Origin: Psychrobacter sp. NG25
GTDB taxonomy: Bacteria; Pseudomonadota; Gammaproteobacteria; Pseudomonadales; Moraxellaceae
NCBI RefSeq assembly: GCF_015234355.1
Contig: NZ_JADGMV010000002.1
Span: 248,001-312,000, forward strand
Direction: 5' to 3'
DNA length: 64,000 nucleotides
Shown here: piece by piece, positions 10,116-43,872 of the stretch
How the letters are laid out: each line of letters begins with the position of its first letter
Position numbering within the stretch: the stretch's first letter is position 1
Translations under genes and position numbers: made by a program
The notes under the pieces: model-generated
Database searches by the model: none
What the model was told of the DNA's origin: nothing
What the model saw: only the letters and a program-made list of their open reading frames with translations

Positions 10116-10129
10116 AAATAGAACGTATA

Positions 10130-10170
10130 AAAACCCTTCACGCTATGAAAATTTAGCGTGAAGGGTTTTT
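10130..10170 (+). terminator. Rho-independent terminator of the siderophore locus
   Basis: AAAACCCTTCACGCT pairs with AGCGTGAAGGGTTTT around a 10-nt loop, ending in a T run. A strong hairpin that separates the locus from the convergent integrase gene. Confidence 0.9.
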
Positions 10171-26655: not shown

Positions 26656-26719
26656 CCGCAAGATGATGATATATGCTAAGGCGTGACCTCTCTCCAAAAC
26701 AGAAAAATAGGAAGCTATT

Positions 26720-27505: not shown

Positions 27506-27539
27506 GCTATTTTTAAGCCTATTCCACTAAGGATAAGTT

Positions 27540-28280
27540 ATGACTTACTGTGCCGCTATACGCCTGAAAGAAGGGATGGTTTTTGCTAGCGACACGCGTA
27601 CCAATGCTGGGGTTGATCACATCTCAACCTTCAGAAAGCTCTATCAGTATGGCATTGAAGGCGAGCGTTTTATAGTATTGCAAACAGCTGGCAGCTTAGC
27701 GACATCGCAGGCGGTCTTTAACAAACTGCAAAACGATATTGATCAGCGCCTTGAGAGTAATCTTAATACAGTAGCCACTTTATTTGATGCCGCCCAAATG
27801 GTTGGTGAATGTATGCGTGACATTATGAATCATGCAAAAGCAGTCGCTAATGCTAATGTCGATGGCGCGTTTACCAGCTCTTTTATGCTCGGTGGTCAAA
27901 TCAAAGGGCAGCCGCCTGAGCTTTACATGATTTATCCTGCAGGTAATTGTATTAAAGCCACTGAAGACACACCGTTTTTCCAATTGGGTGAAAGTAAGTA
28001 CGGCAAACCAATTCTAGATCGTTCTGTCAGCTACAATACGGATGTGAGGCATGCAGCACGTGCGTTGATGCTGTCATTTGATTCAACCATTCAATCCAAC
28101 TTGTCAGTAGGCATGCCCATAGATTTTGTACTTTATGACAATGACAGCCTAACCCTGCCTAATGGCCGACGTATTGATGAGAATGATGAATATTTCAATA
28201 GCATTCGTCGTCAATGGTCAGAGGAGCTCCGCCGTATTTTGGTTGAATTGCCTAAATGTCCTGATGGTTATTGGGGATAA
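27540..28280 (+). CDS. Anbu, proteasome-like peptidase
   Basis: A 246-residue protein of the Ntn-hydrolase fold, ancestral beta subunit (Anbu). The start MTYCAAIRLKEGMVFASDTRTNAGVDHIS is characteristic and leaves Thr2 as nucleophile after Met removal. Family members assemble as open helical or ring particles. It is last in the operon with alpha-E/ATP-grasp and transglutaminase-like partners, the standard Anbu neighbourhood. The AAGGATAAGTT upstream supports the start. Two hairpins follow before the next module. Confidence 0.93.
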   Translation: MTYCAAIRLKEGMVFASDTRTNAGVDHISTFRKLYQYGIEGERFIVLQTAGSLATSQAVFNKLQNDIDQRLESNLNTVATLFDAAQMVGECMRDIMNHAKAVANANVDGAFTSSFMLGGQIKGQPPELYMIYPAGNCIKATEDTPFFQLGESKYGKPILDRSVSYNTDVRHAARALMLSFDSTIQSNLSVGMPIDFVLYDNDSLTLPNGRRIDENDEYFNSIRRQWSEELRRILVELPKCPDGYWG

Positions 28281-28345: not shown

Positions 28346-28371
28346 ATTATCAACTAATAATTAGGCAATAA

Positions 28372-28413
28372 AAAACCGGAGTATGACTGAATAAACAGCA
28401 CTACTCCGGTTTT
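28372..28413. terminator. Second hairpin, symmetric A/T-flanked stem
   Basis: AAAACCGGAGTA pairs with TACTCCGGTTTT around an 18-nt loop, 27 bp after the previous terminator. It is symmetric and could work on both strands as a backup insulator, or form part of the ncRNA leader. Confidence 0.55.
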
Positions 28414-28419
28414 GCTTTA

Positions 28420-28790
28420 AAGACCTTGAATGCCATCATAGTGATGTCAAACTCAATTGTTGTGTAATCTACCTCATGACCTGGTACATGGAAGACTCAC
28501 TGGACTGCACCTAGATAAAGGCCCTAGTGCATTAGCTCAATCACGATTGCGTGATTGCGCCAGCGAGCTAATGACACTAGGGCCTTTATCTAGGTATTAG
28601 CAGGACTGAAACAGCCTTCCTTGGGTAAAATGTAATGGCTTGACTCGTGGACGACGCAACGTCGCCCATCACCGTAAACGGTGAAACGCTAAATCTCACA
28701 ACCCGTTAAGTGTGCCTCATAACAGTTAGTACTGTCAATACATAATTGCCCACTTTCTTTGCTTGCGACATCTGTTGTCGCCAGCTATTT
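28420..28790 (+). ncRNA. Candidate retron ncRNA (msr-msd) region; ends approximate
   Basis: A 540-bp space without ORFs before a four-gene operon ending in a retron-type RT holds a dense set of hairpins: CATCA/TGATG at 28434-28446, the long msd-like stem at 28510-28594, CGACG/CGTCG at 28652-28664, TCACCGT/ACGGTGA at 28669-28684, ACAGT/ACTGT at 28722-28735 and GCGACA/TGTCGC at 28765-28781. A long hairpin flanked by smaller ones is the shape of a retron msr-msd. I could not assign a1/a2 complementary ends or the branching G with certainty; a weak option pairs GTTGTG (28458) with CACAAC (28697). Transcript ends are not known. Confidence 0.6.
28510..28594 (+). repeat. Long msd-like hairpin
   Basis: The 29-nt arm at 28510-28538 (from CCTAGATAAAGGCCC to TTAGCTC) is the reverse complement of 28565-28594 except for one bulged base. 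The 26-nt apex contains a second hairpin, AATCAC-GATTGC-GTGATT (28539-28556). A stem this long and perfect in non-coding DNA upstream of an RT operon is what a retron msd template looks like. Confidence 0.8.
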
Positions 28791-28890
28791 ATTTTGTGAC
28801 AAAAGTCCTTGATGTTTTTTGTAAAACGCGGTTACATAGGGCATACAAATACATCGTAAGCTGACAAAATAAAAATTAAGGCAAATTTCT

Positions 28891-31800
28891 ATGAGTCTGT
28901 CCTTCGCACAAATTCAGCAAGCTTGGCAAGCCCAAGACCCTAGCTTGGTTGATAAGTTATGTTTATTAGCAACACAAGTTGATGATATTCCTGAGTCGCC
29001 CATCCCCGAGCACGAACTGACATTTGAGCGATTTTTGGACAAAATTCTAAGTCATCAGTTCCGAGAGCAAAACCCCGAAGTACAGTTTGCAGAGCGTGTG
29101 GCAATGATTGCCAAGCTTGAGGCAGACGAAGGCGTCTACCCTCTCCCTGATCGCTACAAAATCCATTTAATATTAACCGCACTGTGGGAAGATGGCAGCG
29201 CCTATTCTAGAACTATTCTAAAACAAGCCATTACGGCTTTGCCAGTCAGCTATGGTGTGTGGAAAGGTTTGAAGCGTATTTACAAGCAAGCGGAATTTTC
29301 TCAAGATTATGAGATATTTGGACAAATTTCCGCCAAGATTGATTTACAACGCTTCAATCAAACCGCTAATTCTACTGTCAGCCTAGCCACCAAAACCTAT
29401 ATGAGCCTCAGAGCATGGCGTTATCTGCGGCAATTGGGTCAGCAGATGCCAATTGGCTATATTGATGCTGCCCTCTCTGTACTCGCCAGCTATGACGAAA
29501 CCATGACAGCTGGCAGCCCTGAACAAACGAGCAGCTGGGTACTCAATCACATCTGCTTCCATAACAGCCTTGATTATGGCGTCAATCGATTCAGCAGCCG
29601 CTCACCTCGCAAGCTCTTTGATGCAAAAGGTCGCGCTTTCGCTGAGGCGTGGCAACGAGACCCTGAACCACTTATCCAGCTATTGGCTATCGCCAAAAAT
29701 GAGGCTGTCAGACAGTTCGCAACCGATAGCCTAAAACACGATTTTAAGACCCAATTACGTGATGTGAGTGGTGAGACGCTACAATATTTATCTGCCGGAC
29801 AAGCGCATAGCAAAGCGCGTGATGAGATGATTGTTTGGCTATTAGAGAACGCACCACATTTTGAAAAGTCTAAATTTCAAACATTGGGCTTGCATCAAGT
29901 CGTACTGCAACTACTCCATTCACACTATCCTGCCGCCTATCAATATGCGATTGGCTATGCCAAAAGCTACGCTCAGGACTTATCGCTCACTGAGCTGATG
30001 CTACTAGCCATGTCAGATTATGAGCCTGTTAGAGTATTTGCCATCAACAGTATCTTGAGTCGTGACCCTGTTTCTGATATCGGTGTCAACGGTTGGGGTC
30101 AGTTATTAGACACAGAGCATCACTATCAAACCGCGAGCAAACAACTTAGCAAACATTTTACGAGGCGCGATTTAACCCCTGAGTGGTTTTTTGAACGACT
30201 GACTAGTGGCAGAACACACAGCGTAAAATTTGCCATAAAAAAACTGCCTGAGCTTTATAGTGCCAAAGAGCTAGGGACTGAATATTTTATACGCGTTGCC
30301 CAGCAATTAGATATACCAGAGCAACAGGACTTCTCTGCTCATAATTGCAGTTACTGTAATGATAGCGACTGCATGGACTTTGCGTTGGATCAGCTCAGAC
30401 GTTTGGATTTGAGCCAAGTAAACGCTGCCGTGTGGCAAATGCTGTTATTACATCCACTATCGCAATCCACTATTACCGATTGGTTTGATGAAGATGTACT
30501 GTCAGCAGCAACGCTTGATATGAGCTATTGGCATGCACTTGCCTATGAGCCTGATTGGCAAGTGAGCGAATATGTTGAACAATTAAAATCTGCTGACACT
30601 CCTATTAAAAACTGGCAAAAGCACTTGGCCTTTGATGAGTACTTAGCAGAAAACGTGCGGGACTGGCTATCTGATGTGCGTCGTTTTGCACCAATAGATT
30701 TAGGTTTCGACTGGCTTATGAACCTTGCGCATAGCGAACAAGTACTCTATCGTGAATTTGCTATTGAGCGCATTAACAAAGGGTTCTTGCCTGCCGACTT
30801 TATCGCATATCTTGACAGTAATGAAGGCGCCTCTACTGACAACGCTTTCAGTAACGCTTCCATTAATGGCACTGACAATAAAGACTCGAATAGCGATGCT
30901 GCTACTGAAGTAGATTTAACCGGCCAACGCTATTTATTCACAGGCAAAATGCAAAGTATGACTCGTGGCGAGGCCGAAAAAGTTGTGAAAGCGGCTAATG
31001 GTGCCATCAGTGGCGCTGTCAACGGCAAGTTAGATTACTTGGTCATCGGTGATGATGGTTCACCGTTATACGGTAATGGCCGTAAAGGTAGCAAGCAAGT
31101 TAAAGCCGAAAGCTTAATCGCCGATGGTGCGCCGCTAAAGATTATTTCCGAAACCGCCTTTTTACAGATGCTGAGTGGTCAATCGAGAGAGGTGTCTGAA
31201 GACGATACTTTTGCAGGTGCCAACGCACTGTGGCATATGGCAACAGATGACGCTACTGCACCTATCAGTGAGCTTGCGATTAGCTACCTCAGTCATCATC
31301 ATGAACAGATCTGCATGGCACTGACAGACAGACCAGTCGATCCCGATGCGATTATCCCTTCTTCGTTCTTTGATGCAGAGCGTGTCATTCCTTTACTGCA
31401 ACACCGTAACAGCCAGCTACGAGAATTTGGCTTATTACTGAGTGAGTATGAGATGGCGACGTGGCAACCAACGCCAGCCCTATGGCTGATGATGGCAGAA
31501 TCTCCCTATACGGATATCACGCAACTACTGAAGCGTGCGCTATTGGACAAGCCATCCGTTGCCAATCGACGTTACCATGTTCAGTCAGCACAATTGAATA
31601 CTGACATGTTGAATGCGTTGATTGAAAGCAAAGCGCGAGTCGCTCGCCAAATCGGCATCACCTTGCTGCAGCGTCATGCCAATTTCCAAGATGTGCAGTC
31701 TTTATATCGATTGACCCAAAGCACAGACCGCGAAGTACGCTATGCCGCCGTGACCATGCTATGGAAACACTATAAGGCGCGTCACGTGTCGCCAAACTGG

Positions 31801-32304
31801 CAACCAACCAGTAGCGATAGTAAAGATAAAGATGCTGCGCAAGATAAAGATAGCAGCGCTCAACCAGTCATAACAGAGCAGACAGATAAACGTTTGGCAA
31901 GCTTGCCTGCAGAAGTTGATCAGCTACTAATGCTGCTACGCCGTGGCCTCTTTGAGCTACCACCTGGCCGTCTAGGCGGTTCGCAAGAGCCAAGTACTAG
32001 TGACAGCAGTAAGCATAAGCAACAACGTTACTCAGATAAAAACTCATCAGAGCAAACTGAGTCAGATAGCAACATCACGCTAAAACCCATATCTGCGAGT
32101 CGTGCCAAATTGGCTTTGATTGAGACTTTTCGTGATGTGGCATTAGCTGACAGCACCTTTGCAGCGCTCATTATGCCCACACTGTTCACCTTTACGCACT
32201 CTGCAGGCAAGATGGAGCGTCATGCGTGTTTGGTTGCCGTCACACGGTTATTGCATCGCTATCCTGAGCTATCTAAAAATCTGCAGCCAGTGGCATCGGC
32301 TTAA
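28891..32304 (+). CDS. HEAT-like repeat protein with internal BRCT domain
   Basis: A 1137-residue protein, the first gene of the RT operon. Most of it is alpha-helical repeat-like (for example MLLAMSDYEPVRVFAINSIL and STDREVRYAAVTMLW). At about 674-762 sits a BRCT domain of the DNA-ligase/RFC type (GQRYLFTGKMQSMTRGEAEK, LDYLVIGDDGSPLYGNGRKGSKQ). BRCT domains bind DNA ends or phosphoproteins. A small Cys/His group (H484, C486, C489, C494) could bind zinc. Ser/Asp/Lys-rich linkers flank the BRCT and a late segment (about 970-990 and 1030-1060). I recognise no catalytic motif. In the retron context it may recognise a DNA state or the RT-msDNA complex. The start has only AAGG 11 bp upstream. Confidence 0.75.
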   Translation: MSLSFAQIQQAWQAQDPSLVDKLCLLATQVDDIPESPIPEHELTFERFLDKILSHQFREQNPEVQFAERVAMIAKLEADEGVYPLPDRYKIHLILTALWEDGSAYSRTILKQAITALPVSYGVWKGLKRIYKQAEFSQDYEIFGQISAKIDLQRFNQTANSTVSLATKTYMSLRAWRYLRQLGQQMPIGYIDAALSVLASYDETMTAGSPEQTSSWVLNHICFHNSLDYGVNRFSSRSPRKLFDAKGRAFAEAWQRDPEPLIQLLAIAKNEAVRQFATDSLKHDFKTQLRDVSGETLQYLSAGQAHSKARDEMIVWLLENAPHFEKSKFQTLGLHQVVLQLLHSHYPAAYQYAIGYAKSYAQDLSLTELMLLAMSDYEPVRVFAINSILSRDPVSDIGVNGWGQLLDTEHHYQTASKQLSKHFTRRDLTPEWFFERLTSGRTHSVKFAIKKLPELYSAKELGTEYFIRVAQQLDIPEQQDFSAHNCSYCNDSDCMDFALDQLRRLDLSQVNAAVWQMLLLHPLSQSTITDWFDEDVLSAATLDMSYWHALAYEPDWQVSEYVEQLKSADTPIKNWQKHLAFDEYLAENVRDWLSDVRRFAPIDLGFDWLMNLAHSEQVLYREFAIERINKGFLPADFIAYLDSNEGASTDNAFSNASINGTDNKDSNSDAATEVDLTGQRYLFTGKMQSMTRGEAEKVVKAANGAISGAVNGKLDYLVIGDDGSPLYGNGRKGSKQVKAESLIADGAPLKIISETAFLQMLSGQSREVSEDDTFAGANALWHMATDDATAPISELAISYLSHHHEQICMALTDRPVDPDAIIPSSFFDAERVIPLLQHRNSQLREFGLLLSEYEMATWQPTPALWLMMAESPYTDITQLLKRALLDKPSVANRRYHVQSAQLNTDMLNALIESKARVARQIGITLLQRHANFQDVQSLYRLTQSTDREVRYAAVTMLWKHYKARHVSPNWQPTSSDSKDKDAAQDKDSSAQPVITEQTDKRLASLPAEVDQLLMLLRRGLFELPPGRLGGSQEPSTSDSSKHKQQRYSDKNSSEQTESDSNITLKPISASRAKLALIETFRDVALADSTFAALIMPTLFTFTHSAGKMERHACLVAVTRLLHRYPELSKNLQPVASA

Positions 32305-32374
32305 CGGCTTTGGCAAACAGATATAGATAAAAGATACTTAAAAAATATGACGTCACCTCAACTGAGATAACAAC

Positions 32375-35300
32375 ATGAAAACAATAACACTCCCCTATTG
32401 GGGTCAAATTATTGGCTTAGTCAGTAAGGCCAACAGCACCCAAGCGGCAACTCAAAAGACAACCAAGCAAGATGGGCGCAGTATTTTTATTACTCGCCAG
32501 CAGCAAGCATCTACTACGGTCTTATACGTCCTTGATCAACAAGGTGAGCAATTTAGCTTATCGACAACTGCGCTGCCTTGTGCGATGCAAGCCATCACCG
32601 AAATAGATGACAGCACTATTGTGATGATTGGTGATGATGGTCATCTTTACCAAACGGATTGGCAAGCCAAGAAAGTTAAGAAGACCAGTGCCAAATCCTT
32701 ACTCGATGCACCTGAAAATAATAACAGTACTATAGGCCGTGCCGTAGCAATGGCACCACTACAAGATGCACTGGCTATTTTATATCCGAAACACATCGTG
32801 GTATGGCCTTATCAGGACAGCCAAGCCAGCAGTACTGTCATCATTGAGCCTTATTCGTCTTCTATAGCAACATCAAGTAAGGAGTCTGCATTAACAGCGC
32901 TAGCAACCTCAAGTGATGGCTCGTGGCTCGTGGTGGCAGATAAAATAGGAGATGTTAGTAGCTATCAATGGACTTCAGGTGAAACAAAGCTCAATCTAAG
33001 TAGCCGCAAACAGCTCCACCAAGGTAAGGTAAACGCGCTTTGTTTTGAGCCGGTCGGTCAGTACTTTTTCTCAGCAGGCGCAGATAAGTGCTTATACCGT
33101 ACTCATGTCCAAGGCGATCTGCATCCTGTTGATAGAGCCAAGTCTAGCCAACACAGTGAAATGATCACGGCGCTTTGTGTCTCAGACACACGGTTATTTA
33201 CCGCTGCCGATGACAAGAGTGTTAAGTCATGGGCATTTGATAAAGGTCAGCCAAACAGCTGTAAAGAGGATCTGACCAAGGCTCGACAGATCGTCTTATC
33301 TTCTTATGCTGAACAACCAACGCTCATCGTCGTCAGTGCCGATCAGAGCTTACGTTTCATACCTATTGACCATACTCAAAGTACGTCACAGAATAGCACC
33401 TCACAAAATAGTACGGCAAAAAATAGCAAGCTGCTGCCAGTTACTTATATCATCAAAGACGGCTATCAGAGAATCAGCCAGTTACTGACAGATGCCTCAA
33501 ACAATAACGATGTGTCTTTTAAAGAAGGCTTGGCGCTGCTACAGGCGCAAGCAGATAACCAAACATTAGAGCTGGTTAAAAAATTACTTGCTGATAGCGA
33601 CACACTCACGGCCAATCAAGCATTGCAACTGGTACAGTGGATTGCGACAACAAAACTGGATAAAACTGCACAGGTTTTAGAGCAGCAACTAAGCTCGGCT
33701 CACAGTGCAAAAGTACGCCTTGCTGCTTTTCATGCCTTGGCCGACCGCGCAAGTACGGCGAAGCGCCCGCTGCATTATCTAGAAGAAGCCTTTAAAAACC
33801 GTTACTACGAAGAAGTGGTGGCTTCTGCGTTACAAGGTTACCTAAAGGTCGCGATGACCGATGCTACGAGCCAGCGCCGCATCTTACCTATTTTAAGAGA
33901 AGCGTTGTCACACAGTTTTGCGAATATTCGTAAGCAAGCATTGGCCTCGCTTGAGACACTATTGCCTGACAACAGCCCGCAAGCAGACTTAATGGCATTA
34001 GACTGCAATCAGTCAGACATTGTCCAATCAGGGTTAATTCGTCTGTATCAGCGCGGTATGCTAAACCATCTTGAAGTCTCGCGTCAGTTGATGCTGCTAC
34101 AGAATCATCGTAATATAGAGATTAGGCAAACGGCGTTTTACGTCTCATTACTGTCTCAACCCAAGTTGATAGAGGCGTTAAAACAGCAAGGCGACACGCA
34201 AACATTACGTACCTTAACTGATTTTGATGACTTTCGCTTACTACGTGGCACGCTACTAGATAACGCTAGTAGCACAGCGGCGAATGATAATAATGTTAAA
34301 CAATCCGATGAGGCGATCCGTTTAACCTTATCCACGCAAGACTTTATCTCGCAAGCAGATAATACCCAAGCATCTGAGAGTAAGGCTAAAACGGTAAAAT
34401 CCAAGAAGCCTGATACTGAATCTATAAAGCTAAGCAATGACACGTTAGAGCCCTTATTACAAAGCTTAAGCAATAGTCACGAAGATATCAGTTTCCGAGC
34501 GGCTTATGCGCTGGCTTGTCTACAAGACAAACGGGCGTTTGGCACTTTGATTAGTCTGATGAGCCATGAAGACAGTGCCATCATCCGTGCTGGTGTCGCC
34601 ACCGCGCTTGGTCATTTAAATATAGAAGATGCCAAAGCAGTCCTACCGACATTACTAGACGATAAGGACGCTGGCGTGCGCCAAGTCGCCATGCAAGCCT
34701 ATGGTAAGTTGTCAGACAATGTCTTGTCTTGGGCAGCGACAGGTTTTGCTTCTAAACATCAAGACATTCATGAGCAGTCTTTAGCACTGTTTTTAAAGCA
34801 TGTAACGCCAGATGGCTTAAATAGTGGTGATAGCAGTGATAAAAGCGCACAGATGTCGTCAGAGATGACAGACTTACTGCTACAAGCGTTAAACAACCCT
34901 TTTACCAGTATTCGGTTAGAAGTGGTTAAAGTTCTATTAAACCGCCAATTTAAGCAGTCATCTGACAATATTTCTAAAAACGTTTCTGACAGTGCTATCG
35001 TTGACATTATCAAGCTATTGCAGCAAAGCCTCTTTGAAGATGTGCATCAAGTGGCGATAGAAGAATGGCAACGACTGTTGCTATCGATGACATCGAAGCA
35101 TAAAACAAATAAAGTTGAAGAAACTGATAGTCAAAAGACCAATCAAGCTGTTCTGCCCCTATTCTTTGCAGATACGTTTGCCGCTATCCGTAAGCAAGCC
35201 TTTGATATTGCACTCAAGCAAAGCAAGCATTTAGGGTTTGCTGACGTCATGTTAAGCGCGCTTGCCAGCCCTTATGCTGATACCAAGCAACTGGCCCTTA

Positions 35301-38300
35301 CGACAGTGCAAGCCAGAGCGAATACGACTCAGCTGATACAGTTGATGCCAGCTCTCGTGGCCATGTTCGCTGATGACAGTATTGAGCTGCGTAAGCAAGC
35401 CTTGACGGTTGCTTTGGCACTAACAGACTTGCAGCCCACTATTTTAGCGAATAAAAACAGCACTGATGATCAACCGAATCAACACGAAGCATTAATTACC
35501 GCAGCCCTCAACAGCCCTTATCCTGACATCCAGCTAACAGTCGCTCAACTACTGGCCAGCCAATCACGCCTATATGCTGACGAAAAACAGGCACAGCGGA
35601 GTGATGAACAAGCGTATCAAGTCTTTAAACACTATCTAGAACTGCCTATGCCCTCTCAAGGCAAGAAAAGTGACAGCTATACCCAGTGGCACAGTCATGT
35701 AAGCCAAGCACTGTCTGGCTTGTCTAAACTGGCATATCCATCAAAGCATGATGCACTAGGTTGGTATGCTAAATATCTACACCACCCTGATGCTGATTTT
35801 AAACCCCTTGCACCAAAGATTACGCAGATAGTTTCTTTTGAAGACGTTGATCTACTGGTGAAATGGCAAAAAGATGAGCGCGACATTATCAGTCAATCAG
35901 CCAGTTTGTGTTTGGCTATTTTGGGTGATGCTCGCGGGCAGTACTTCCTTACTCATGACATAAGAGACGAAACAGACAATCTGAGTACGCTTGTCGCACC
36001 GATGACACCTACGCATTGGCTTCAAGCACAGCACGGTTTAGGTGTTACACATGCACGGCAATTACAGCCTTTATTTGAGTCAGAGCCCTATGCAGTAGCA
36101 GCTAGACTGTTATTGATATTTAATGACTTACAGAATGGCTTGCAAGATAGCCTGCAAGCTCCTGAAAAGACCGCTACTAGCACTGGTCGACCCAACCGAC
36201 TGATAGAAGCCCTAAGCTTTGCCGATAATGACACGGCAGTAGTCTATGCCAACATACTCGCTCGTTATCCTATTGACGTACAACACCCTAATAACCAAAA
36301 AGCCCTATCGTTAACGTGGCAGTACCTAAGTGATTACTTGTCACGTCAATTAGGCAGTATTTTATCTTCTCACTCTGAAGTCATCACAATGATGATGGAT
36401 GCCATGCCAAACACGGCAGATAAAGGTGGTGTTAAAGGACAGTCGAATAATACGGCCTCTATCCGAGTAAGTATCCTGACAACCGTCAGTACCGAAAAAT
36501 TACTACAGCTCGCCAACCTCAGTCGCCATCAGCAGCCATTGGTACGCGCACAAACCATTAGTGTCATTTGCCACTTATCTGAATTACTCGCCCATGACTA
36601 TTATGACGATGAGGACGATGTTTTTGAGACACTACAAAAATGGCAACGCAGTTTGCAGGCATTGCTAAGTGCTCACCCTGTATCAGCCTCTATTCAGGAT
36701 GTTGCAAACGACAATATGCAAGCATCATGTGACTCTTCTACTGACAAACAAGACAGTCAGGAAGTACATTATCCTTACCAGTCTCTTGCCTTTGGCGCTT
36801 GGATTGGCGTCATACGCGTAAGCGATGATTATTATGCGAATAGCAGCACCACAGACCAAGCCATTCGAGGGCTAATGTGGCTTGCTACTCAATCATCGCA
36901 GCTTAACACCAATAACAACACTAATAACGATGAGGACTGGCGAGACAGTACCAGTCGCGTGCTACTGCCACTACTCAACCACAGTAGTTTTGACACTCGT
37001 GAGTTGGCTTGGGCATGCTTGTATAAGCTGGACATGCCTGCCAACAAGCTGGCTGACTATGCCATGAGCACGCCCTACCGTGATATGGTCAAACGCGGCT
37101 TGGATCTATTGCTAGATACCGTAAATAACAATGCCGTACAGCAGCAAAGCAAACCATCGGATACAGCTACTGTCAGTAGCGCTGATCAACAACTCATTGA
37201 TTTGTTAAAAACCAATAATCACACCTTAGCAGAAGAGACCTATCAGCTGCTAAAAGGCCGACTGGGCCATCTGCCAGCCAGCTTGCTTGGGCTACAGACC
37301 TATTGTCAGTCGCTGCTGCCTCAAATCGTTGCTGAGTGGAAACAAGTCATCGTCACACCCTTTGCAAACAGTCAAACGCCATCAGTGCAACGTCAAGATA
37401 AACTGACGTTTTTGCTGCAGGCCGTCAAGAGTGATGACTGGAGTGCTAAGTATCAAGCACTGGAGCAACTGGTCGAGTTTTATGACGTACTGTTTGCAGA
37501 CAGTACGCTATTTGATAACTTATTTGATTTTGCTGAAGATGCTCGGACCAGTGGAGAAAAATATCGTAGCTCGAAGCTACTGTCTGATGCACTCATATCG
37601 TACCAATACCTCAATAAGAATACTTTAGAAGGGCGTTTAGAGAGCAGCTTTGATATCACCACTGCTGAACAGGTTGCCAATGCGGCGCACTTTCGATTAT
37701 TAGCCTTACTTGATGACCCTCACAACAAAAAACCTAAACAGATTATTTATTGGGATATTGCTGACCTACGTAACAAAAAATTGGTTGAACCCTTACTGCA
37801 GCGTTTAGAAAATCTGTTTGAGCACACGCCAGAAAAAAATAAAGAAGAGCGTAAATACTTATTTACTACTCTCTTAAAAATCAGCGGTTACGATCAAAAA
37901 ATTGAGGATTATTTGGAGGAGCGTGAAGACACGCGTTGGTTGCAACGTCAGCATCCAAGAGACCCGCAAGTGCTACTGTCGCTGTTTATCACGCTTATGA
38001 ATCATAATGATTATGAGCTTGCCACGCAGCTATTGCCATCACTTGCATGGGTACAATCGGACGACAGCGACCTATCCTCACGCATTGATACCGCTTTAGC
38101 ACTCGCCTATGAGCAAATACCAGCCAACCATACCTTTAAGTTGGTTGAAGCACTGGCATATCGAGCCAAAAGACGTCACGGAAGCATTGCTTCATTACAA
38201 AACGCCCTACGCAATAAAGACGCCGATGTGCAGTTTGCCGCGGCTGAAGGACTCGCTAAATGCGGTCATGCTGATGGGGTCAATATCTTGATGGCCACGA

Positions 38301-40102
38301 TCGATTATAACCCTGATGCTGAGTTCCGCAGCTGCAGTGTGTTAGCCATTGGCGAGCTACTAGGCAGCAATAATAATCAAAATGCTAACTCGCCTACGGA
38401 CAATGCTGATAAAAACTTACAGGTTCATACTCTGTACAAAGCCTATGATAAGTTAATCAAACTGGCCGAAGACGATGAGCACTACTTACAAGACGTGGCC
38501 AGTGAAGCCTTGGGTCGCCTTGCACAAGGTGGTGACTTTGAGCATAGTCCGCATATTTTTGAGCTATTAAAATCGCACTTGTCAGACCCCGTAGTCCATT
38601 TCACCAATCCCGCCATTGTCCATTGGTTAAATGGACTGCGCTGGCTCAACACAACGCCTGCTTGGGAGCAAATACGCAGCTATATACGCACTCATATCGA
38701 TAAAGCCATATTCTTCCGTCCACAAAGACATGCGGTATGGCTACTGCAGATGAATAATAGCGATGCCAATAAAGCATTAATTTTAGATATCTTAAAGCAA
38801 AACAATCTAGATCGTGATGTGCTCATGGTGGCTTATACTGCGGCACAGAAAACGTGGGGCAGTCTGGCGTCGCAGATTTATCCTTATGATTGGGCAGCCA
38901 TCCAAAGCCATAATGATGACTTTGCAGAAGAGACGGAGCGTTTGAGCCTAAAGCGTATTATTGATAATAGTAGCATCGATGAGCTGGCAGTGTTCATCAC
39001 GCAGCATGGTGCGCACTTGCCAGCCGATACCCTGATGGCACTGCAAAATGCCATTATGGCCAAGCAAGATATGCCAACATCACAGCTTACCGCGTTAATT
39101 ACCAGTAACAACACACTGACACAGCATATTGGACTGTGCTATCTGACTCAGTATCCAACCAGCTATCTAGACAAAGAACTGGTTGCGACATTGCAGCAAC
39201 GTTTTGAAACCGCCAGTGAGAAATGGCATACACTGATCGATACCATCAACCGCAGTCCGACTACTATCAGTAACAACCAGTGGATCGAGATGGTTGAACA
39301 AGTGGGTAACACTATCAAACAACTGGTTTGGCTAATCATGCGTCATGTGGCCATCAAAACTGCCAAAGGGGCTGTCGATAAAGTGGCGGTTAAGCAGATA
39401 TCAGCAATGTTTGATTGGCTCAACGATGCGCGTCAACCATTGACTACCACCTCTATTCCATTACTGTCTACTACCGTCAGCGATTGGTGGCAGCAAGCAC
39501 TGCTTGCGTTACTGGCCAGACCTGTCGCCGAAGATAAGATGCTGTCAGGTATCGTGGCGACGTTGAGCGCTGTATCGACAGCAACTCAATCGCAGCTCAC
39601 TTATGACAATCAAACCTTGCTAGAAACGTTGCTTGCTCGTATTGAACAAAGCGGTACATCTACCCAAAAATCCATAATAACTGTGGTAAAGAATGCGCTG
39701 AAAAATAAGAGCTCGTTTACCGAGATGCCAATCAATCAGCAGCTACTACAGTGGGTCAGAGCAAAAGATGCCGATGCACTTTATCATTGTGCGAGTAATG
39801 ACAACATGGAGATGACCGTTCGTATCCGTGCCATCGAGGCGCTTGGACAACTACATGATCCAAATATCGAGCAGTGGCTGACGACACTCATGACGCATGA
39901 AAATGCAGATATTCAAAAGCTTGCTTATAAAGTAATGCGTCGCTGGCAGCGTGCCATGGTACGAGCGCAGCAAAAGCGTCCATTATCACCTGGCAACTTG
40001 TCATCTGGCAATACAGAGTCACAACCTAGCTCGACCCAAGCAACACAAAATAGTCAGGACAGCAGTCAAAAAAGCAATCAGGGTGAAGGAGACAGTCAAT
40101 GA
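32375..40102 (+). CDS. Giant WD40/beta-propeller and HEAT-repeat protein
   Basis: A 2575-residue protein. Residues 1-330 look like a beta propeller with WD40-type blades (ALATSSDGSWLVVADKIGDVSSYQW, VNALCFEPVGQYFFSAGADKCLYRT, ITALCVSDTRLFTAADDKSVKSWAF). From about 370 to near the end run many HEAT-type helical pairs (for example DEAIRLTL, SFRAAYALACLQDKRAFGTLISLM, VRQVAMQAYGKLSD, VQFAAAEGLAKCGHADGVNILM). The C-terminus is Ser/Gln-rich. No enzyme motif was found. Such architectures act as large scaffolds. Its stop overlaps the next start by 4 bp (ATGA). It matches the ARM/HEAT partner I recall for type XIII retrons. Confidence 0.85.
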   Translation: MKTITLPYWGQIIGLVSKANSTQAATQKTTKQDGRSIFITRQQQASTTVLYVLDQQGEQFSLSTTALPCAMQAITEIDDSTIVMIGDDGHLYQTDWQAKKVKKTSAKSLLDAPENNNSTIGRAVAMAPLQDALAILYPKHIVVWPYQDSQASSTVIIEPYSSSIATSSKESALTALATSSDGSWLVVADKIGDVSSYQWTSGETKLNLSSRKQLHQGKVNALCFEPVGQYFFSAGADKCLYRTHVQGDLHPVDRAKSSQHSEMITALCVSDTRLFTAADDKSVKSWAFDKGQPNSCKEDLTKARQIVLSSYAEQPTLIVVSADQSLRFIPIDHTQSTSQNSTSQNSTAKNSKLLPVTYIIKDGYQRISQLLTDASNNNDVSFKEGLALLQAQADNQTLELVKKLLADSDTLTANQALQLVQWIATTKLDKTAQVLEQQLSSAHSAKVRLAAFHALADRASTAKRPLHYLEEAFKNRYYEEVVASALQGYLKVAMTDATSQRRILPILREALSHSFANIRKQALASLETLLPDNSPQADLMALDCNQSDIVQSGLIRLYQRGMLNHLEVSRQLMLLQNHRNIEIRQTAFYVSLLSQPKLIEALKQQGDTQTLRTLTDFDDFRLLRGTLLDNASSTAANDNNVKQSDEAIRLTLSTQDFISQADNTQASESKAKTVKSKKPDTESIKLSNDTLEPLLQSLSNSHEDISFRAAYALACLQDKRAFGTLISLMSHEDSAIIRAGVATALGHLNIEDAKAVLPTLLDDKDAGVRQVAMQAYGKLSDNVLSWAATGFASKHQDIHEQSLALFLKHVTPDGLNSGDSSDKSAQMSSEMTDLLLQALNNPFTSIRLEVVKVLLNRQFKQSSDNISKNVSDSAIVDIIKLLQQSLFEDVHQVAIEEWQRLLLSMTSKHKTNKVEETDSQKTNQAVLPLFFADTFAAIRKQAFDIALKQSKHLGFADVMLSALASPYADTKQLALTTVQARANTTQLIQLMPALVAMFADDSIELRKQALTVALALTDLQPTILANKNSTDDQPNQHEALITAALNSPYPDIQLTVAQLLASQSRLYADEKQAQRSDEQAYQVFKHYLELPMPSQGKKSDSYTQWHSHVSQALSGLSKLAYPSKHDALGWYAKYLHHPDADFKPLAPKITQIVSFEDVDLLVKWQKDERDIISQSASLCLAILGDARGQYFLTHDIRDETDNLSTLVAPMTPTHWLQAQHGLGVTHARQLQPLFESEPYAVAARLLLIFNDLQNGLQDSLQAPEKTATSTGRPNRLIEALSFADNDTAVVYANILARYPIDVQHPNNQKALSLTWQYLSDYLSRQLGSILSSHSEVITMMMDAMPNTADKGGVKGQSNNTASIRVSILTTVSTEKLLQLANLSRHQQPLVRAQTISVICHLSELLAHDYYDDEDDVFETLQKWQRSLQALLSAHPVSASIQDVANDNMQASCDSSTDKQDSQEVHYPYQSLAFGAWIGVIRVSDDYYANSSTTDQAIRGLMWLATQSSQLNTNNNTNNDEDWRDSTSRVLLPLLNHSSFDTRELAWACLYKLDMPANKLADYAMSTPYRDMVKRGLDLLLDTVNNNAVQQQSKPSDTATVSSADQQLIDLLKTNNHTLAEETYQLLKGRLGHLPASLLGLQTYCQSLLPQIVAEWKQVIVTPFANSQTPSVQRQDKLTFLLQAVKSDDWSAKYQALEQLVEFYDVLFADSTLFDNLFDFAEDARTSGEKYRSSKLLSDALISYQYLNKNTLEGRLESSFDITTAEQVANAAHFRLLALLDDPHNKKPKQIIYWDIADLRNKKLVEPLLQRLENLFEHTPEKNKEERKYLFTTLLKISGYDQKIEDYLEEREDTRWLQRQHPRDPQVLLSLFITLMNHNDYELATQLLPSLAWVQSDDSDLSSRIDTALALAYEQIPANHTFKLVEALAYRAKRRHGSIASLQNALRNKDADVQFAAAEGLAKCGHADGVNILMATIDYNPDAEFRSCSVLAIGELLGSNNNQNANSPTDNADKNLQVHTLYKAYDKLIKLAEDDEHYLQDVASEALGRLAQGGDFEHSPHIFELLKSHLSDPVVHFTNPAIVHWLNGLRWLNTTPAWEQIRSYIRTHIDKAIFFRPQRHAVWLLQMNNSDANKALILDILKQNNLDRDVLMVAYTAAQKTWGSLASQIYPYDWAAIQSHNDDFAEETERLSLKRIIDNSSIDELAVFITQHGAHLPADTLMALQNAIMAKQDMPTSQLTALITSNNTLTQHIGLCYLTQYPTSYLDKELVATLQQRFETASEKWHTLIDTINRSPTTISNNQWIEMVEQVGNTIKQLVWLIMRHVAIKTAKGAVDKVAVKQISAMFDWLNDARQPLTTTSIPLLSTTVSDWWQQALLALLARPVAEDKMLSGIVATLSAVSTATQSQLTYDNQTLLETLLARIEQSGTSTQKSIITVVKNALKNKSSFTEMPINQQLLQWVRAKDADALYHCASNDNMEMTVRIRAIEALGQLHDPNIEQWLTTLMTHENADIQKLAYKVMRRWQRAMVRAQQKRPLSPGNLSSGNTESQPSSTQATQNSQDSSQKSNQGEGDSQ

Positions 40103-42354
40103 CTATAGATAACCAATTGGACCAAGCGTCAGAAACAAAGTCAGAAGTAGTAGTAAACACTGATGGCTTGATGATGCAATTAGACTACGCTGCACCTAGT
40201 CAAATCAGTCAAGTTAACGAATCGTCAGACTCATTGTCGGAGGCGCAAACAAGCGAACACACTCAGCATGTAGCACTATTTGCTCAGCTGAATCGATCTG
40301 ACGTTAACTTCCACGGTAAGGTCAAGTCTCCTCTTGTTTTTCGTGACAGTTTGCTAGCATTGTTTGATGTGGTGAGTAGTGACTACCGTTATGTGCCAAA
40401 AGACCGCTCAGCATATACGGTATTTATGCAGATGCGCCGTGCTAGCAGCAATAAAAACCTATTTACCGCACAACGTGATTATTTCACGTGGCTATTCGAT
40501 AACGACCCACTCGCCTTTTGTATTTTAGATCCGATTATTCAGGTGCACGAGCAAGGCGTTAGCTTTGAGGTATTTAGCCGTGATGAAGGCTGCTATGCTC
40601 AATTGACATTGACCAATGAGATTTTTGAGCAAAGTACCAAACCTACCATTGGTACCACAAACATTGATTACAGCGCGGCTCTATTTAACGGTATTGAAAA
40701 AATTCGCGACCATCAACAAACGATATTAGACATTGGTCATGAAGCGGTCGGCTTACAGCTACTCGAAACCATACCAGAAACAGATGTAGCAGATACTGAT
40801 AGCGATGTAGCCAACCCTAGCGTAAAAGAGCAGATCATAGAAAAACGTATCAATGTACCAAAAAGTTGGATCAGAGCGCTGTTACAAGTACAGTCTGCAG
40901 GCCAATTACCACAAGATACTATTCATCTTGATCCAATCGCATTGTATAACGTATTGTTTGAGCTACGTATGCATGCTGATATCAAAGGTAAGCGCCGTGG
41001 TCTACTCATCGAGCTCAGGCCTCAGCAGCTGCCAGTGATTATACTAGAGCCTTTTGACATCACCGTTACCAGCCAAGTGAGTCAACAGCAAAAACCCTAT
41101 CAAGGGCAACAAGCAAAACTAATTCGCTTGTGGGGTCGCAGGCGTCTGAGTCTACTAAAACGTCTGTTACCACATACTGATAGCGTGTCCGTATCACTAC
41201 TGGGTCAAGGTATGCCAAGCTACTGGACGCTAAAAGGCAAAGGCTTCCACTTCACCTTTGCTATGACCGGCTTTAGCCAAGCCAATTGGTCACAGTCATT
41301 AAACTTTGATTTGTTGCTACCCAAGCGCCCATTGCACAATACATTAGCTGCTAGTGAAGAAAACCTTTCAGACAGCCATAACGATAGTAACGATAGTAAC
41401 GATGACAATAATGGCTTGTCTGTATTAATTAAAACACTGGCGAGCACCCCTAGTACTTTAGACGATTTGGTAAAGTCGCTGTCAGCAGATGCTTTATTGA
41501 AATCTGTGCCTGTTTCCCACTCACAAGTGCAGCAATGGTTACTATCAGGTACGCAGCAAGGGTTGATTCGCTTTGAGATGGCGACACAGCTGTATCATTA
41601 CCGACCTTTGACTCAAGTGCCGCTTGAAATGGCGCAGTTCGCTTATCACAACGAAGCAGAAAAGCAGGCTTTTGATTTGATTGGCCGTACAGATGCTGTG
41701 CAGAAATTCACAGTCGAGACTGTCGCTGTCAAAGGTATCACTATCCGTGCAGATATTCATGTCGAGGAAGACAGGCGCACTTATCACAGCCAGCTGCAAT
41801 TAGGCGACGAAGGACTGGTGACCAAAGCAGAGTGTAGCTGCCCGCAATACTTGCAACATCGTCTTACTCATGGTGTGTGTGCGCATCTTATCGCGCTGCG
41901 CCTTAGATACAACCAGTACGACCCTAATAACACGAGCAATGATAGCTGGCATGATACTCGAGTCTTGAGTAAACGCGTGCCAAGCAAGCGTCTTAATAAC
42001 CCTAAGAACACTCAAGCAAACGTACAAGAAAGTGCAAAAATAAAATCAGCTAATAGCTCGCTTATGGCATTACCTTCTGCAGCGACGCTTGATTTGACTG
42101 CCCTAGCTCAACCAGCTGCTCATCCACATACGAATGAAAACGGTAAGGCGCAGGATTTAGCAGCGCAAGAGAGTTCTATTGCTTATGTTTACATCACTAT
42201 TGCTCATAAGAAAATCACCATCGAACAAACAATAAGTGGCAAAGATACGCGCCAACAACTGGCGTTTAATCAACCTGCTCAAGCCAAATCCGCTTTTTTA
42301 CAACATATTGCCAGATTTGAAGCCAAAGGCTTTATCGAAAACCAAGGGATGTAA
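40099..42354 (+). CDS. SWIM zinc-finger protein (WHSWIM-like)
   Basis: A 751-residue protein with a SWIM zinc finger at C579, C581, C594 and H596 (CxCx12CxH: AECSCPQYL...GVCAHLIALRL). SWIM domains bind DNA or proteins. Upstream there are helical regions and a winged-helix-like part (LDDLVKSLSADALLKSVPVSHSQVQQWLLSGTQQGLIRFEM, about 450-490), so the WHSWIM label fits. The Asp/Ser/Asn-rich stretch near 415-435 is low complexity. The gene overlaps the giant HEAT gene by 4 bp and precedes the RT gene by 3 bp, so all three are translated as a unit. I see no nuclease motif. Confidence 0.83.
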   Translation: MTIDNQLDQASETKSEVVVNTDGLMMQLDYAAPSQISQVNESSDSLSEAQTSEHTQHVALFAQLNRSDVNFHGKVKSPLVFRDSLLALFDVVSSDYRYVPKDRSAYTVFMQMRRASSNKNLFTAQRDYFTWLFDNDPLAFCILDPIIQVHEQGVSFEVFSRDEGCYAQLTLTNEIFEQSTKPTIGTTNIDYSAALFNGIEKIRDHQQTILDIGHEAVGLQLLETIPETDVADTDSDVANPSVKEQIIEKRINVPKSWIRALLQVQSAGQLPQDTIHLDPIALYNVLFELRMHADIKGKRRGLLIELRPQQLPVIILEPFDITVTSQVSQQQKPYQGQQAKLIRLWGRRRLSLLKRLLPHTDSVSVSLLGQGMPSYWTLKGKGFHFTFAMTGFSQANWSQSLNFDLLLPKRPLHNTLAASEENLSDSHNDSNDSNDDNNGLSVLIKTLASTPSTLDDLVKSLSADALLKSVPVSHSQVQQWLLSGTQQGLIRFEMATQLYHYRPLTQVPLEMAQFAYHNEAEKQAFDLIGRTDAVQKFTVETVAVKGITIRADIHVEEDRRTYHSQLQLGDEGLVTKAECSCPQYLQHRLTHGVCAHLIALRLRYNQYDPNNTSNDSWHDTRVLSKRVPSKRLNNPKNTQANVQESAKIKSANSSLMALPSAATLDLTALAQPAAHPHTNENGKAQDLAAQESSIAYVYITIAHKKITIEQTISGKDTRQQLAFNQPAQAKSAFLQHIARFEAKGFIENQGM

Positions 42355-42357
42355 TGT

Positions 42358-43779
42358 ATGACCACTCAAATAGCAAACAATAATGATTACATCAGTCCTG
42401 AGCCAACACCCACTCCTTTTGAGCGTCAGTGGCAACAGCTATGGCAAGACATTGAGCAGGCAGGTGGACGTTACCAATATGTGCAACAGCAACTGGTCAG
42501 TCAAGGATTTATGGTTGATCGCAAACCTGTCGATAACATGAGTCCAAAAGAACGTGAGCGCTATAAAAAAGCCTTAAAAAAGGAAGCCGCTGAAGAAAAA
42601 AGTCTCAAAAAGGCTGCTTGGCAAGCATATAAAGCGCATCACATGGTTTATCTTGGTCGTCATGTATATTGGTCAGATGATACCAGTACTGATAAGTGGG
42701 ATGTCAAAGACGCCGCCAATCGTCTTATCGAAAACAAATTACCACTGTTAAATAAACACAACGAACTCGCAGAGGCTGTGAACCTTACTATCCCGCAATT
42801 AAAGGGACTTTGCTATCAAAGAGAGGTCGCCACCAATCTGTCTTATTCGCATTTTACGATTGCCAAACGCAATGGGACAGCGCGTCAAATATGGTCGCCG
42901 ATACCGCGTTTAAAGTTTGTACAACGCTGGATTTTGCACAATATTTTGAATAACTTAACAACGCATGGTGCCGCTCATGGCTTCGTACGTGGCAAATCTA
43001 TCGTGACCAACGCAGCGGTACATAGCAACAGCGAGTTACTTATCAAGTTGGATGTTAAAGACTTCTTTCCTAGTGTCAGCTGGCGCCGTGTCAAAGGTGT
43101 GTTCCGTCATGCCGGCTATCCAGAGCAGATTTCTACCTTATTGTCATTACTCTGTACCGAATCGCCTCGTCAAGTGGTGCAGCAAGATGGCAAAACTTAT
43201 TACGTGGCGCTAGGAGACAGAGCATTGCCACAAGGTGCCCCTACTAGCCCTGCGTTAACGAACATCGTCTGCTTAAATTTGGATCGTCGTTTAACAGGAC
43301 TGGCTGACAAAATCGGCCTGCGTTATAGTCGCTATGCAGATGATTTGACCTTTAGTATGCCCGCTGTTGCAGACACCAAAACTAAATCAAAAGTTAAAAC
43401 TAGCACCACAAAAAAACAAACCGATACGCAGCACAATAAACTGATTGGGCAACTATTAGGATCAGTTCATAAGATATTACGCGAAGAAGGTTTTGTATTA
43501 AACGATGATAAAACGCGTGTGATTCGTAAAGGCAATCAGCACAACGTTACTGGCATGGTGGTGAATGGCGACGGTGTCCCAAGGGTCTCCCGCCAAATCA
43601 AACGCATGTTACGTGCAGCGCTTCATAATTTAGAGGCAGGCGGCAAATTACGTGCTGATGAGACTTTAAATACGCTGTCAGGATATGCCGCTTGGATAGC
43701 CTCGGCAGAGCCAGATTTGGGACATAGTTATCTAGATAGAATTGAGCGTTTACAAGTGAAGCAAGAAACATCTGCATAA
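42358..43779 (+). CDS. Retron-type reverse transcriptase
   Basis: A 473-residue reverse transcriptase. Catalytic core: LDVKDFFPS (231-239, Asp235 region), QGAPTSP (292-298), YADD (326-329), and the RT4/5 downstream block. Retron-specific signatures are both present: NAAVH (N218-H222, the NAxxH motif) and VTG (397-399). The N-terminal 150 residues are a helical, charged extension not found in short retron RTs. A Lys/Thr/Gln-rich insert of about 25 residues lies just after YADD (338-360). The RT normally copies the msd of its own ncRNA to msDNA; the candidate RNA here lies about 13.8 kb upstream, at the head of the operon. Next 3' is a terminator. Confidence 0.93.
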   Translation: MTTQIANNNDYISPEPTPTPFERQWQQLWQDIEQAGGRYQYVQQQLVSQGFMVDRKPVDNMSPKERERYKKALKKEAAEEKSLKKAAWQAYKAHHMVYLGRHVYWSDDTSTDKWDVKDAANRLIENKLPLLNKHNELAEAVNLTIPQLKGLCYQREVATNLSYSHFTIAKRNGTARQIWSPIPRLKFVQRWILHNILNNLTTHGAAHGFVRGKSIVTNAAVHSNSELLIKLDVKDFFPSVSWRRVKGVFRHAGYPEQISTLLSLLCTESPRQVVQQDGKTYYVALGDRALPQGAPTSPALTNIVCLNLDRRLTGLADKIGLRYSRYADDLTFSMPAVADTKTKSKVKTSTTKKQTDTQHNKLIGQLLGSVHKILREEGFVLNDDKTRVIRKGNQHNVTGMVVNGDGVPRVSRQIKRMLRAALHNLEAGGKLRADETLNTLSGYAAWIASAEPDLGHSYLDRIERLQVKQETSA

Positions 43780-43801
43780 ATATTTATTTATATTTATAAA
43801 A

Positions 43802-43837
43802 AATGAGTATTAGAGAATTCCATTTCTAATACTCATT
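43802..43837. terminator. Terminator between RT gene and UvrA-like gene
   Basis: AATGAGTATTAGA pairs with TCTAATACTCATT around a 10-nt loop. The minus strand ends in TTTTT, so it clearly stops the UvrA-like gene; for the RT gene it is a weak stop as no T run follows. Confidence 0.75.
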
Positions 43838-43872
43838 CAAGTGAAGCATGTTAGCGCAGAATTATATTTTAA

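What the first reader, a model, noticed from the sequence alone, without database searches (positions are those of the whole stretch)
28350..43840. Four-gene retron-like system with giant scaffold proteins
A terminator-bounded block carries a structured non-coding leader, a HEAT-like/BRCT protein, a 2575-aa WD40-HEAT protein, a SWIM zinc-finger protein and an RT with both retron signatures (NAAVH, VTG). The last three genes overlap or nearly touch, so they act together. From memory, type XIII retrons pair an RT with ARM/HEAT and SWIM proteins; this locus looks like an extended form. A scaffold plus DNA-end reader plus msDNA suggests an abortive antiphage sensor, but no effector enzyme is visible in any of the proteins, so the killing step is unknown.
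Basis: partly seen in the sequence, partly recalled or inferred. Interest (0 to 1): 0.93.

Follow-up and report, generated by a model that had tools for sequence, protein, structure and literature searches.

The report
Retron with swappable DNA baits
This four-gene type XIII retron of a Psychrobacter-like bacterium has a predicted template RNA with a constant frame around a hairpin stem whose sequence changes, both arms together, even between close relatives, so it likely makes exchangeable DNA baits that would report phage attack.

The parts
28459..28703 (-). retron ncRNA (msr-msd), divergent from the operon
   Evidence: CM R1 hit 189.7 bits, E 3e-44, the only match at E <= 0.1 in the genome (the window is one of the model's 21 sequences); fold z -9.3; covariation
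28690..28702 (-). a1 repeat GTTGTGAGATTTA
   Evidence: pairs with a2 (inverted repeat I9; fold)
28459..28471 (-). a2 repeat TAGATTACACAAC
   Evidence: as a1
28688..28691 (-). TAGC with the candidate branch guanosine (28689)
   Evidence: sequence; TAGC as commonest priming context from PMC6868368 (passage)
28669..28684 (-). msr hairpin 1 (TCACCG-TTTA-CGGTGA)
28649..28667 (-). msr hairpin 2 (GGGCGACGTTGCGTCGTCC)
28509..28595 (-). msd hairpin; arms 28575-28595 and 28509-28529 perfectly complementary
   Evidence: I1
28581..28590 (-). hypervariable stem core, 5' arm
28514..28523 (-). hypervariable stem core, 3' arm
28709..28738 (-). promoter-like TTGACA-18-CACACT just before a1 (-10 weak; not called by the scan); TTGACA kept in 14 of the 16 loci listed
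28365..28413 (-). inverted repeat followed on the minus strand by a T run; possible ncRNA terminator
   Evidence: I3; not called (long loop)
28891..32304 (+). HEAT-solenoid protein with inserted BRCT domain (about 677-760)
   Evidence: PADLOC HEAT-ARM_XIII PDLC02921 1105 bits; model pLDDT 82.7; RFC1 BRCT E 2e-6
32375..40102 (+). giant WD40-HEAT scaffold
   Evidence: PADLOC PDLC02919 1814 bits; Pfam HEAT_2 E 7e-31
40099..42354 (+). SWIM_XIII protein: predicted PCNA-like fold 70-399, winged-helix-like region, SWIM zinc finger 565-600
42358..43779 (+). retron RT (RT_XIII)
   Evidence: 523 bits against 288 for the next family; motifs

Best explanation
This is a type XIII retron whose predicted template RNA, encoded divergently from four operon genes, holds a hypervariable hairpin stem in a constant scaffold, and the msDNA that would be made from it likely serves as a double-stranded DNA bait for phage proteins. 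Shown by sequence: the four genes and their type; the ncRNA element, its orientation relative to its relatives, its conserved pairing and its co-occurrence with the RT; the exchange of stems at constant scaffold, in the window's genus and at larger scale in Gemmataceae and Myxococcota. Predicted: the SWIM protein carries a PCNA-like sliding-clamp fold and the HEAT protein a DNA-end-type BRCT domain. Inferred: the RT copies the stem into DNA; RT, HEAT-BRCT, WD40-HEAT and clamp-like SWIM protein hold it as one complex; a phage protein that binds, cuts or modifies the bait disturbs the complex; the clamp-like SWIM protein is then freed onto DNA and halts replication. In genomes with many ncRNA genes one protein set would display many baits.
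For: Type. ncRNA: 40 of 53 pairs compensated, covariation 0.599 against 0.096-0.151 for slid controls. In 14 of 14 Planctomycete four-gene loci with a full match it lies upstream of the first gene on the operon's strand. Co-occurrence with RT: Gemmataceae 31 of 31 ncRNA genomes have RT_XIII, 0 of 52 RT-negative genomes have the ncRNA; Moraxellaceae 27 of 27 strong-RT genomes have it; Myxococcota 17 of 18 against 2 of 20 ncRNA-negative genomes tested. Stem exchange: L071/L075 8 of 20 core against 0 of 225 other columns, L076/L077 6 of 20 against 1 of 223, core changes paired in both; L071 and L079 share the core but differ at 17 of 225 other columns. Gemmataceae: majority fraction 0.46 in the left and 0.41 in the right arm, 0.81-0.89 in scaffold and loop, 6 arm mismatches in 1416. 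Palindromes of 10 bp or more in 16 of 57 arms against 4.0 +/- 1.8, maximum 10 in 500 dinucleotide shuffles. Clamp fold.
Against: No msDNA, phage or toxicity data exist here. No catalytic effector was found. Five stem sequences had no exact match in viral contigs, and one Gemmataceae stem occurs in its genome only in its own ncRNA, so no bait target is known. The window's genome shows a single ncRNA. The clamp match is of fold only, from a model of mean pLDDT 71; no sequence profile supports it. The minus-strand promoter has a weak -10 and was not called by the scan. In three of nine G318/G320 locus pairs the stem was kept. In one search one of five measures (further pair types, 95) is reached by 84 of 500 shuffles, and the structure was derived from the same alignment. 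12 Gemmataceae RT genomes have no ncRNA match.
Confidence: 0.45

Rival explanations
1. Stems vary only because nothing but pairing is required of them; the retron guards a toxic protein complex through msr and RT, and the stem is a neutral spacer copied or gene-converted between arms.
For: Perfect hairpins can be rewritten by template switching between arms, and pairing is nearly perfect (6 mismatches in 1416). An inverted apical segment in L067 shows that the hairpin is prone to such events.
Against: Whole 24-bp cassettes differ at 87-92% flank identity in 6 of 9 G318/G320 locus pairs, the same cassette sits at loci without shared flanks (L234/L223, 24 of 24), and stems are enriched in palindromes. 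The variable length is 29 nt in 65 of 71 parsed copies.
Confidence: 0.3
2. The dispersed Gemmataceae and Myxococcota copies are retrotransposed or duplicated repeats with no function, as proposed for Nannocystis msDNA-like repeats.
For: Retron-Nex1 had duplicated msr-msd repeats without an RT nearby (PMC6868368, section 9 read). Copies in G318/G320 share flanking repeats, one lies beside a terminase-like fragment (L252), and some pattern matches are degenerate (such as L267 and L269).
Against: 48 of 62 copies with both regions found have an a1/a2 helix of 9 bp or more against 22% in mismatched copies; stems stay paired; some copies are kept with the same stem between species.
Confidence: 0.25
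3. The giant WD40-HEAT protein or a host enzyme is the effector, and the clamp-like SWIM protein only packages msDNA.
For: The WD40-HEAT protein is the large extra part of the four-gene form; no enzyme is visible in any of the four proteins.
Against: The compact form lacks it but keeps HEAT, SWIM and RT (L146, L148-L150), so it is not the minimal effector.
Confidence: 0.3
4. The structured region is a sense-strand leader of the operon.
For: It folds on the + strand too.
Against: In relatives the element lies on the operon's strand in the orientation that is minus here; the CM scores 240 bits on that strand and 48 on the other in L126.
Confidence: 0.04

Closest known systems
Retron type XIII (PADLOC models RT_XIII, SWIM_XIII, HEAT-ARM_XIII, WGR_XIII)
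   Same: All four proteins match the models nearly end to end.
   Different: Nothing in the protein set. The ncRNA family, its divergent placement, its hypervariable stem and the clamp fold are not in those protein models; whether the original type XIII description (Mestre 2020, not held) covers the ncRNA could not be checked.
Myxococcal retrons Mx162/Sa163 (Retron-Mxa1, -Sau1)
   Same: Transcript of 241 nt and RT with extended N-terminus (PMC6868368, passages), close to the 245 nt and the ~120-aa extension here; homologous ncRNAs exist in the phylum of G301, two with CAGC (L308, L309), and a Stigmatella and a Myxococcus protein match HEAT-ARM_XIII.
   Different: Identity with Mx162 itself was not tested; no Mx162 sequence was at hand.
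Retron-Nex1 repeats of Nannocystis exedens
   Same: Several msr-msd copies without RT nearby (PMC6868368 section 9).
   Different: There read as possibly retrotransposed duplicates; here mostly complete units, 11-30 per genome in three genomes, with exchanged stems.
PCNA / 9-1-1 sliding clamps and RFC1 BRCT
   Different: No sequence-level clamp match; extra winged-helix and SWIM parts; no clamp-loader ATPase among the four proteins.
Diversity-generating retroelements
   Same: Reverse transcriptase plus hypervariable segment in a constant frame.
   Different: Variation sits in the ncRNA stem, not in a protein gene; changes are not limited to adenines (stems); mechanism of exchange unknown.

Membership tests
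Retron (general) | RT with NAXXH and VTG motifs | tested here: met
   NAAVH 218-222, YADD 326-329, VTG 397-399; motif definitions from PMC6868368 (passages)
Retron (general) | msr-msd ncRNA with a1/a2, TAGC guanosine and msd hairpin beside the genes | tested here: met
   it lies on the strand opposite to the operon
Retron (general) | msDNA produced | not testable with these tools
   needs nucleic acid from cells
Retron type XIII | RT_XIII best match | tested here: met
   523 bits, next 288
Retron type XIII | SWIM_XIII and HEAT-ARM_XIII neighbours | tested here: met
   507, 1105 and 1814 bits
Retron type XIII | anti-phage activity | not testable with these tools
   no experiment; one paper only lists a PADLOC call of type XIII in Variovorax (PMC11953036, passage)
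Sliding clamp (PCNA) family | clamp fold | tested here: met
Sliding clamp (PCNA) family | sequence similarity to clamps | tested here: inconclusive
   no clamp among profile matches to PDB or the 25 of 45 Pfam families shown
Sliding clamp (PCNA) family | ring around DNA | not testable with these tools
   needs structure or loading assay
Rfam ncRNA families | match to a curated family | tested here: not met
   0 matches at gathering score in the window

The most novel reading that the evidence does not exclude
Type XIII retrons are a repertoire immune system: one constant RT, clamp-like and scaffold complex is loaded with msDNAs from one to dozens of ncRNA genes, each showing a different double-stranded DNA bait of about 24 bp that is exchanged as a cassette within and between genomes, so that the bacterium diversifies what it can sense without changing its proteins; the PCNA-like SWIM protein is the hidden effector that seizes DNA when a bait is touched.
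Probability: 0.35. Interest if true: 0.97.

Novelty: new variant of a known kind. Interest (0 to 1): 0.88.

Why it matters
What retron msDNA stems are for, and how type XIII retrons work with no visible effector, are open questions. The natural stem variants found here (identical scaffold, different stem, same genus as the window) make the bait idea testable with almost isogenic constructs. If dispersed ncRNA genes feed one RT, this would be the first DNA-bait repertoire that I know of (from recall; the searches made were made, in one open-licence library). A sliding-clamp fold in a retron partner points to a concrete effector hypothesis; a search for retron with PCNA and sliding clamp listed two papers, both on other subjects by title and abstract. 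An exchangeable 24-bp segment in a constant msDNA scaffold is also of use for retron engineering.

Tried and rejected
Rejected: sense-strand leader (strand scores). Rejected: 'extended, unusual' four-gene layout (conserved across phyla). Stems as copies of viral DNA: 0 exact matches in viral contigs for five stems and one scaffold stretch; not excluded, since relevant phages may not be held and only exact matches were sought. Stem copied from its own genome: one stem tested, only its two arms match. PDB sequence relatives of the SWIM protein: four chance-level rows, no clamp. HEAT protein by Foldseek: HEAT/karyopherin-type solenoids in the 50 rows shown, no enzyme assigned. Flanking-gene analysis of dispersed copies by open frames was confounded by a multi-copy 146-aa frame in G318/G320, so it was redone on DNA colinear with the ncRNA. 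One search's model was built with one misaligned row (L081:16028-16277), which produced two false hits in L081; these were dropped, and model R1 was built without them; alignment A1 still holds two false L081 rows, and these and L083 were left out. The promoter/terminator scan did not call the minus-strand sites. The pattern was mistyped and found nothing; that was narrow and missed L071, L072 and L074-L077 among others. One search's column counts used a wrong length filter (3 rows) and are replaced (59 of 64 rows, loop of 30 nt).

Dropped before counts: one search parsed 75 places; 4 had no recognisable loop and 71 were kept, 70 distinct, 65 with a 29-nt variable segment (64 distinct). In one search, of 26 cross-genome rows, the nine G318/G320 pairs with at least 500 nt of colinear flank are the count used; four G318/G320 rows with 175-251 nt (stems 5, 8, 9 and 4 of 24) are not in it, nor are 13 rows with G302 or G332 (flanks 67-90% identical, stems 5-10 of 24).

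Papers: a search for type XIII by name gave one paper, a PADLOC listing; one search gave none, searches used other terms. PMC6868368: section 9 and passages; PMC8867640 and PMC11953036: passages; PMC12548924 and PMC8934634: term look-ups with no occurrence; the rest listings only; Mestre 2020 and the retron census are not held.

Full report
WHAT IS THERE. Four + strand genes fill 28891-43779. PADLOC assigns them to type XIII retrons over nearly the whole models: HEAT-ARM_XIII 1105 bits, HEAT-ARM_XIII (long model) 1814 bits, SWIM_XIII 507 bits (residues 45-605 of 751), RT_XIII 523 bits with the next RT family at 288. The RT carries NAAVH, YADD and VTG. The genome sits with Psychrobacter: named Psychrobacter records encode the RT at 79-92% identity.

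CONSERVATION OF THE LAYOUT. An RT search in 299 genomes of the window's family (Moraxellaceae, from the relatives' names) gave 35 with matches at E 1e-20, of which 27 are strong (E below 1e-140, the window's own included). I fetched 25 of the 26 other strong loci; G260 was left out because its RT lies at a contig end. All 25 show the four proteins in the same order, though the RT of G274, G272 and G016 is interrupted. Four-gene loci also occur in Thiotrichaceae, Gemmataceae and Polyangia. Of 20 more loci fetched, 16 have the first protein by tblastn; L138 is the compact form, L140 and L145 are cut by contig ends, L144 has no match. A compact form with a ~590-aa HEAT protein, SWIM protein and RT but no WD40-HEAT protein is seen in Gemmataceae (L146 by PADLOC; L148-L150 by BLAST; the other four compact-type loci are less clear). 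So four genes are normal for the type, and the giant protein is the optional part.

THE ncRNA. Upstream of gene 1 lies a 245-nt element conserved in Moraxellaceae. Read on the minus strand it has the retron order: a1, TTTAGC, short hairpins, long perfect hairpin, a2. TAGC is the commonest priming context in known retrons (PMC6868368, passage). Homologues lie upstream of gene 1 in Planctomycetes, there on the operon's own strand in 14 of 14 full matches; of the other two loci with gene 1, L143 is cut by its contig end and L142 has no match. In compact loci weaker matches (50-58 bits) lie at the HEAT-SWIM junction on the operon's strand in 4 of 8 loci (L146, L148-L150; in L146 and L149 they overlap the mechanical start of the SWIM frame). 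In two loci of the phylum of G301 the ncRNA lies between SWIM and RT, in one upstream of gene 1. The element has thus probably been inverted in Psychrobacter, where a TTGACA box stands a fixed distance before a1 in 14 of 16 loci. Model R1 (21 sequences) has 53 pairs, 40 with changes on both sides; covariation 0.599 against 0.096-0.151 for slid versions; one of five measures, further pair types, is no better than shuffles (84 of 500 reach it). Rfam has no match. A class-wide draw of 369 genomes gave 3 with a match, one of them the window's own.

CO-OCCURRENCE. Gemmataceae (family of G305): 95 genomes, 43 with RT_XIII at E 1e-80, 31 with ncRNA at E 0.01, all 31 within the 43; 12 RT genomes lack a match. 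Moraxellaceae: 31 of 299 have the ncRNA, 27 of them the strong RT (in G260 a partial match on another contig, in G188 partly masked); G118, G166 and G212 hold a truncated ncRNA and a fragment of gene 1 between the same flanking genes, a decayed locus; G198 has a full ncRNA in a 420-contig assembly and no RT match. Phylum of G301: 18 of 282 have the ncRNA, 17 of these RT_XIII at E 1e-60, against 2 of 20 ncRNA-negative genomes tested (20 of 264 negatives were tested); the exception, G444, has genes 1 and 2 beside its ncRNA. In 17 loci fetched there from 15 of the 18 genomes, 14 have no operon gene within the fetched 10-19.5 kb; of the three genomes not fetched, G642 has an RT and G585 a piece of gene 1 beside the ncRNA. 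Where the genes lie elsewhere, the ncRNA can only act in trans.

THE STEM. In the window's genus the scaffold is nearly frozen while the core of the msd stem changes with full compensation: L071/L075 8 of 20 core columns and 0 of 225 others; L076/L077 6 of 20 and 1 of 223; conversely L071/L079 0 of 20 and 17 of 225, and the closest relatives of the window keep its core. In Gemmataceae a pattern scan finds 30, 19 and 11 copies in G318, G320 and G332, none for the reversed pattern, against 4, 4 and 3 RT_XIII matches. In the 59 copies aligned (of 64 distinct with a 29-nt variable segment) the majority base fraction is 0.81 (5' scaffold), 0.85 (loop), 0.89 (3' scaffold) and 0.46/0.41 (arms; random columns 0.37), with 6 mismatches in 1416 arm pairs; 57 arms are unique. 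Two tandem copies in L126 share scaffold and loop but not a 23-bp stem. In nine G318/G320 locus pairs with at least 500 nt of colinear flank (87-92% identity) the stem is kept in three (24, 23, 24 of 24) and replaced in six (5, 10, 7, 6, 4, 1 of 24); only three of the nine have both flanks aligned (stems 5, 6, 23), so some one-sided pairs may be rearranged. One stem is identical between L234 and L223, which share no flank. A recent duplicate pair in G318 (L249/L265, 95% left flank) already has unrelated stems (8 of 24). Arms are rich in palindromes: 10 bp or longer in 16 of 57 against 4.0 +/- 1.8 (maximum 10 of 500 dinucleotide shuffles). Copies tend to have their own a1/a2: 48 of 62 with a helix of 9 or more against 22% for mismatched copies.

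HOW IT MAY WORK. Shown: genes, ncRNA family, co-occurrence, stem exchange. Predicted: clamp and BRCT folds. Inferred: msDNA is made; the stem is a bait, because it is what changes while the rest is constant, because its pairing is kept, and because it is rich in two-fold symmetric sites such as dimeric DNA-binding or DNA-cutting proteins use; disturbance frees the clamp-like protein, which blocks DNA replication. The last step is the least supported.

VERDICT. The finding is a genuine member of a known retron type with an ncRNA biology that is new to me; the bold reading is a DNA-bait repertoire. The window's own genome shows one ncRNA only; the repertoire claim rests on relatives.

Noticed in passing
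window 24304-28280 and 43873-46440: The retron sits between an ATP-grasp/transglutaminase/proteasome-like operon and a UvrA-like gene; in more distant Psychrobacter (L014, L020, L071-L075) it lies on the other side of the same ATP-grasp gene.
   Followed up: partly
L219, L220, L221 (G118, G212, G166): Decayed locus: truncated ncRNA without the long msd hairpin plus gene 1 residues 1-78 between the same flanking genes.
   Followed up: partly
L067 17459-17703: The apical part of the msd hairpin is inverted relative to its close relatives.
   Followed up: no
L131 2049-2202: A Gemmataceae copy whose long stem and loop are reduced to a hairpin of about 8 bp.
   Followed up: no
L154 336-1313 -: A third class of RT_XIII-like RT in Gemmataceae (L154-L161) showed no SWIM match nearby; in four loci (L154, L156, L158, L161) a 325-326-aa frame follows it, an FGE-sulfatase domain in the one tested, L154.
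   Followed up: partly
L252 2-439 and 1762-2307: Many dispersed ncRNA copies in G318/G320 lie near a multi-copy 146-aa frame without Pfam or PHROG match; the copy in L252 also lies beside a terminase-like fragment (phrog_38, E 3e-7), and L249 and L265 share that upstream DNA.
   Followed up: partly
L318 (G474 C234) about 9309-10166; L329 and L330 (G518): Copies in the phylum of G301 with nearly the same scaffold and different stems, in tandem in G474, as in Gemmataceae.
   Followed up: partly
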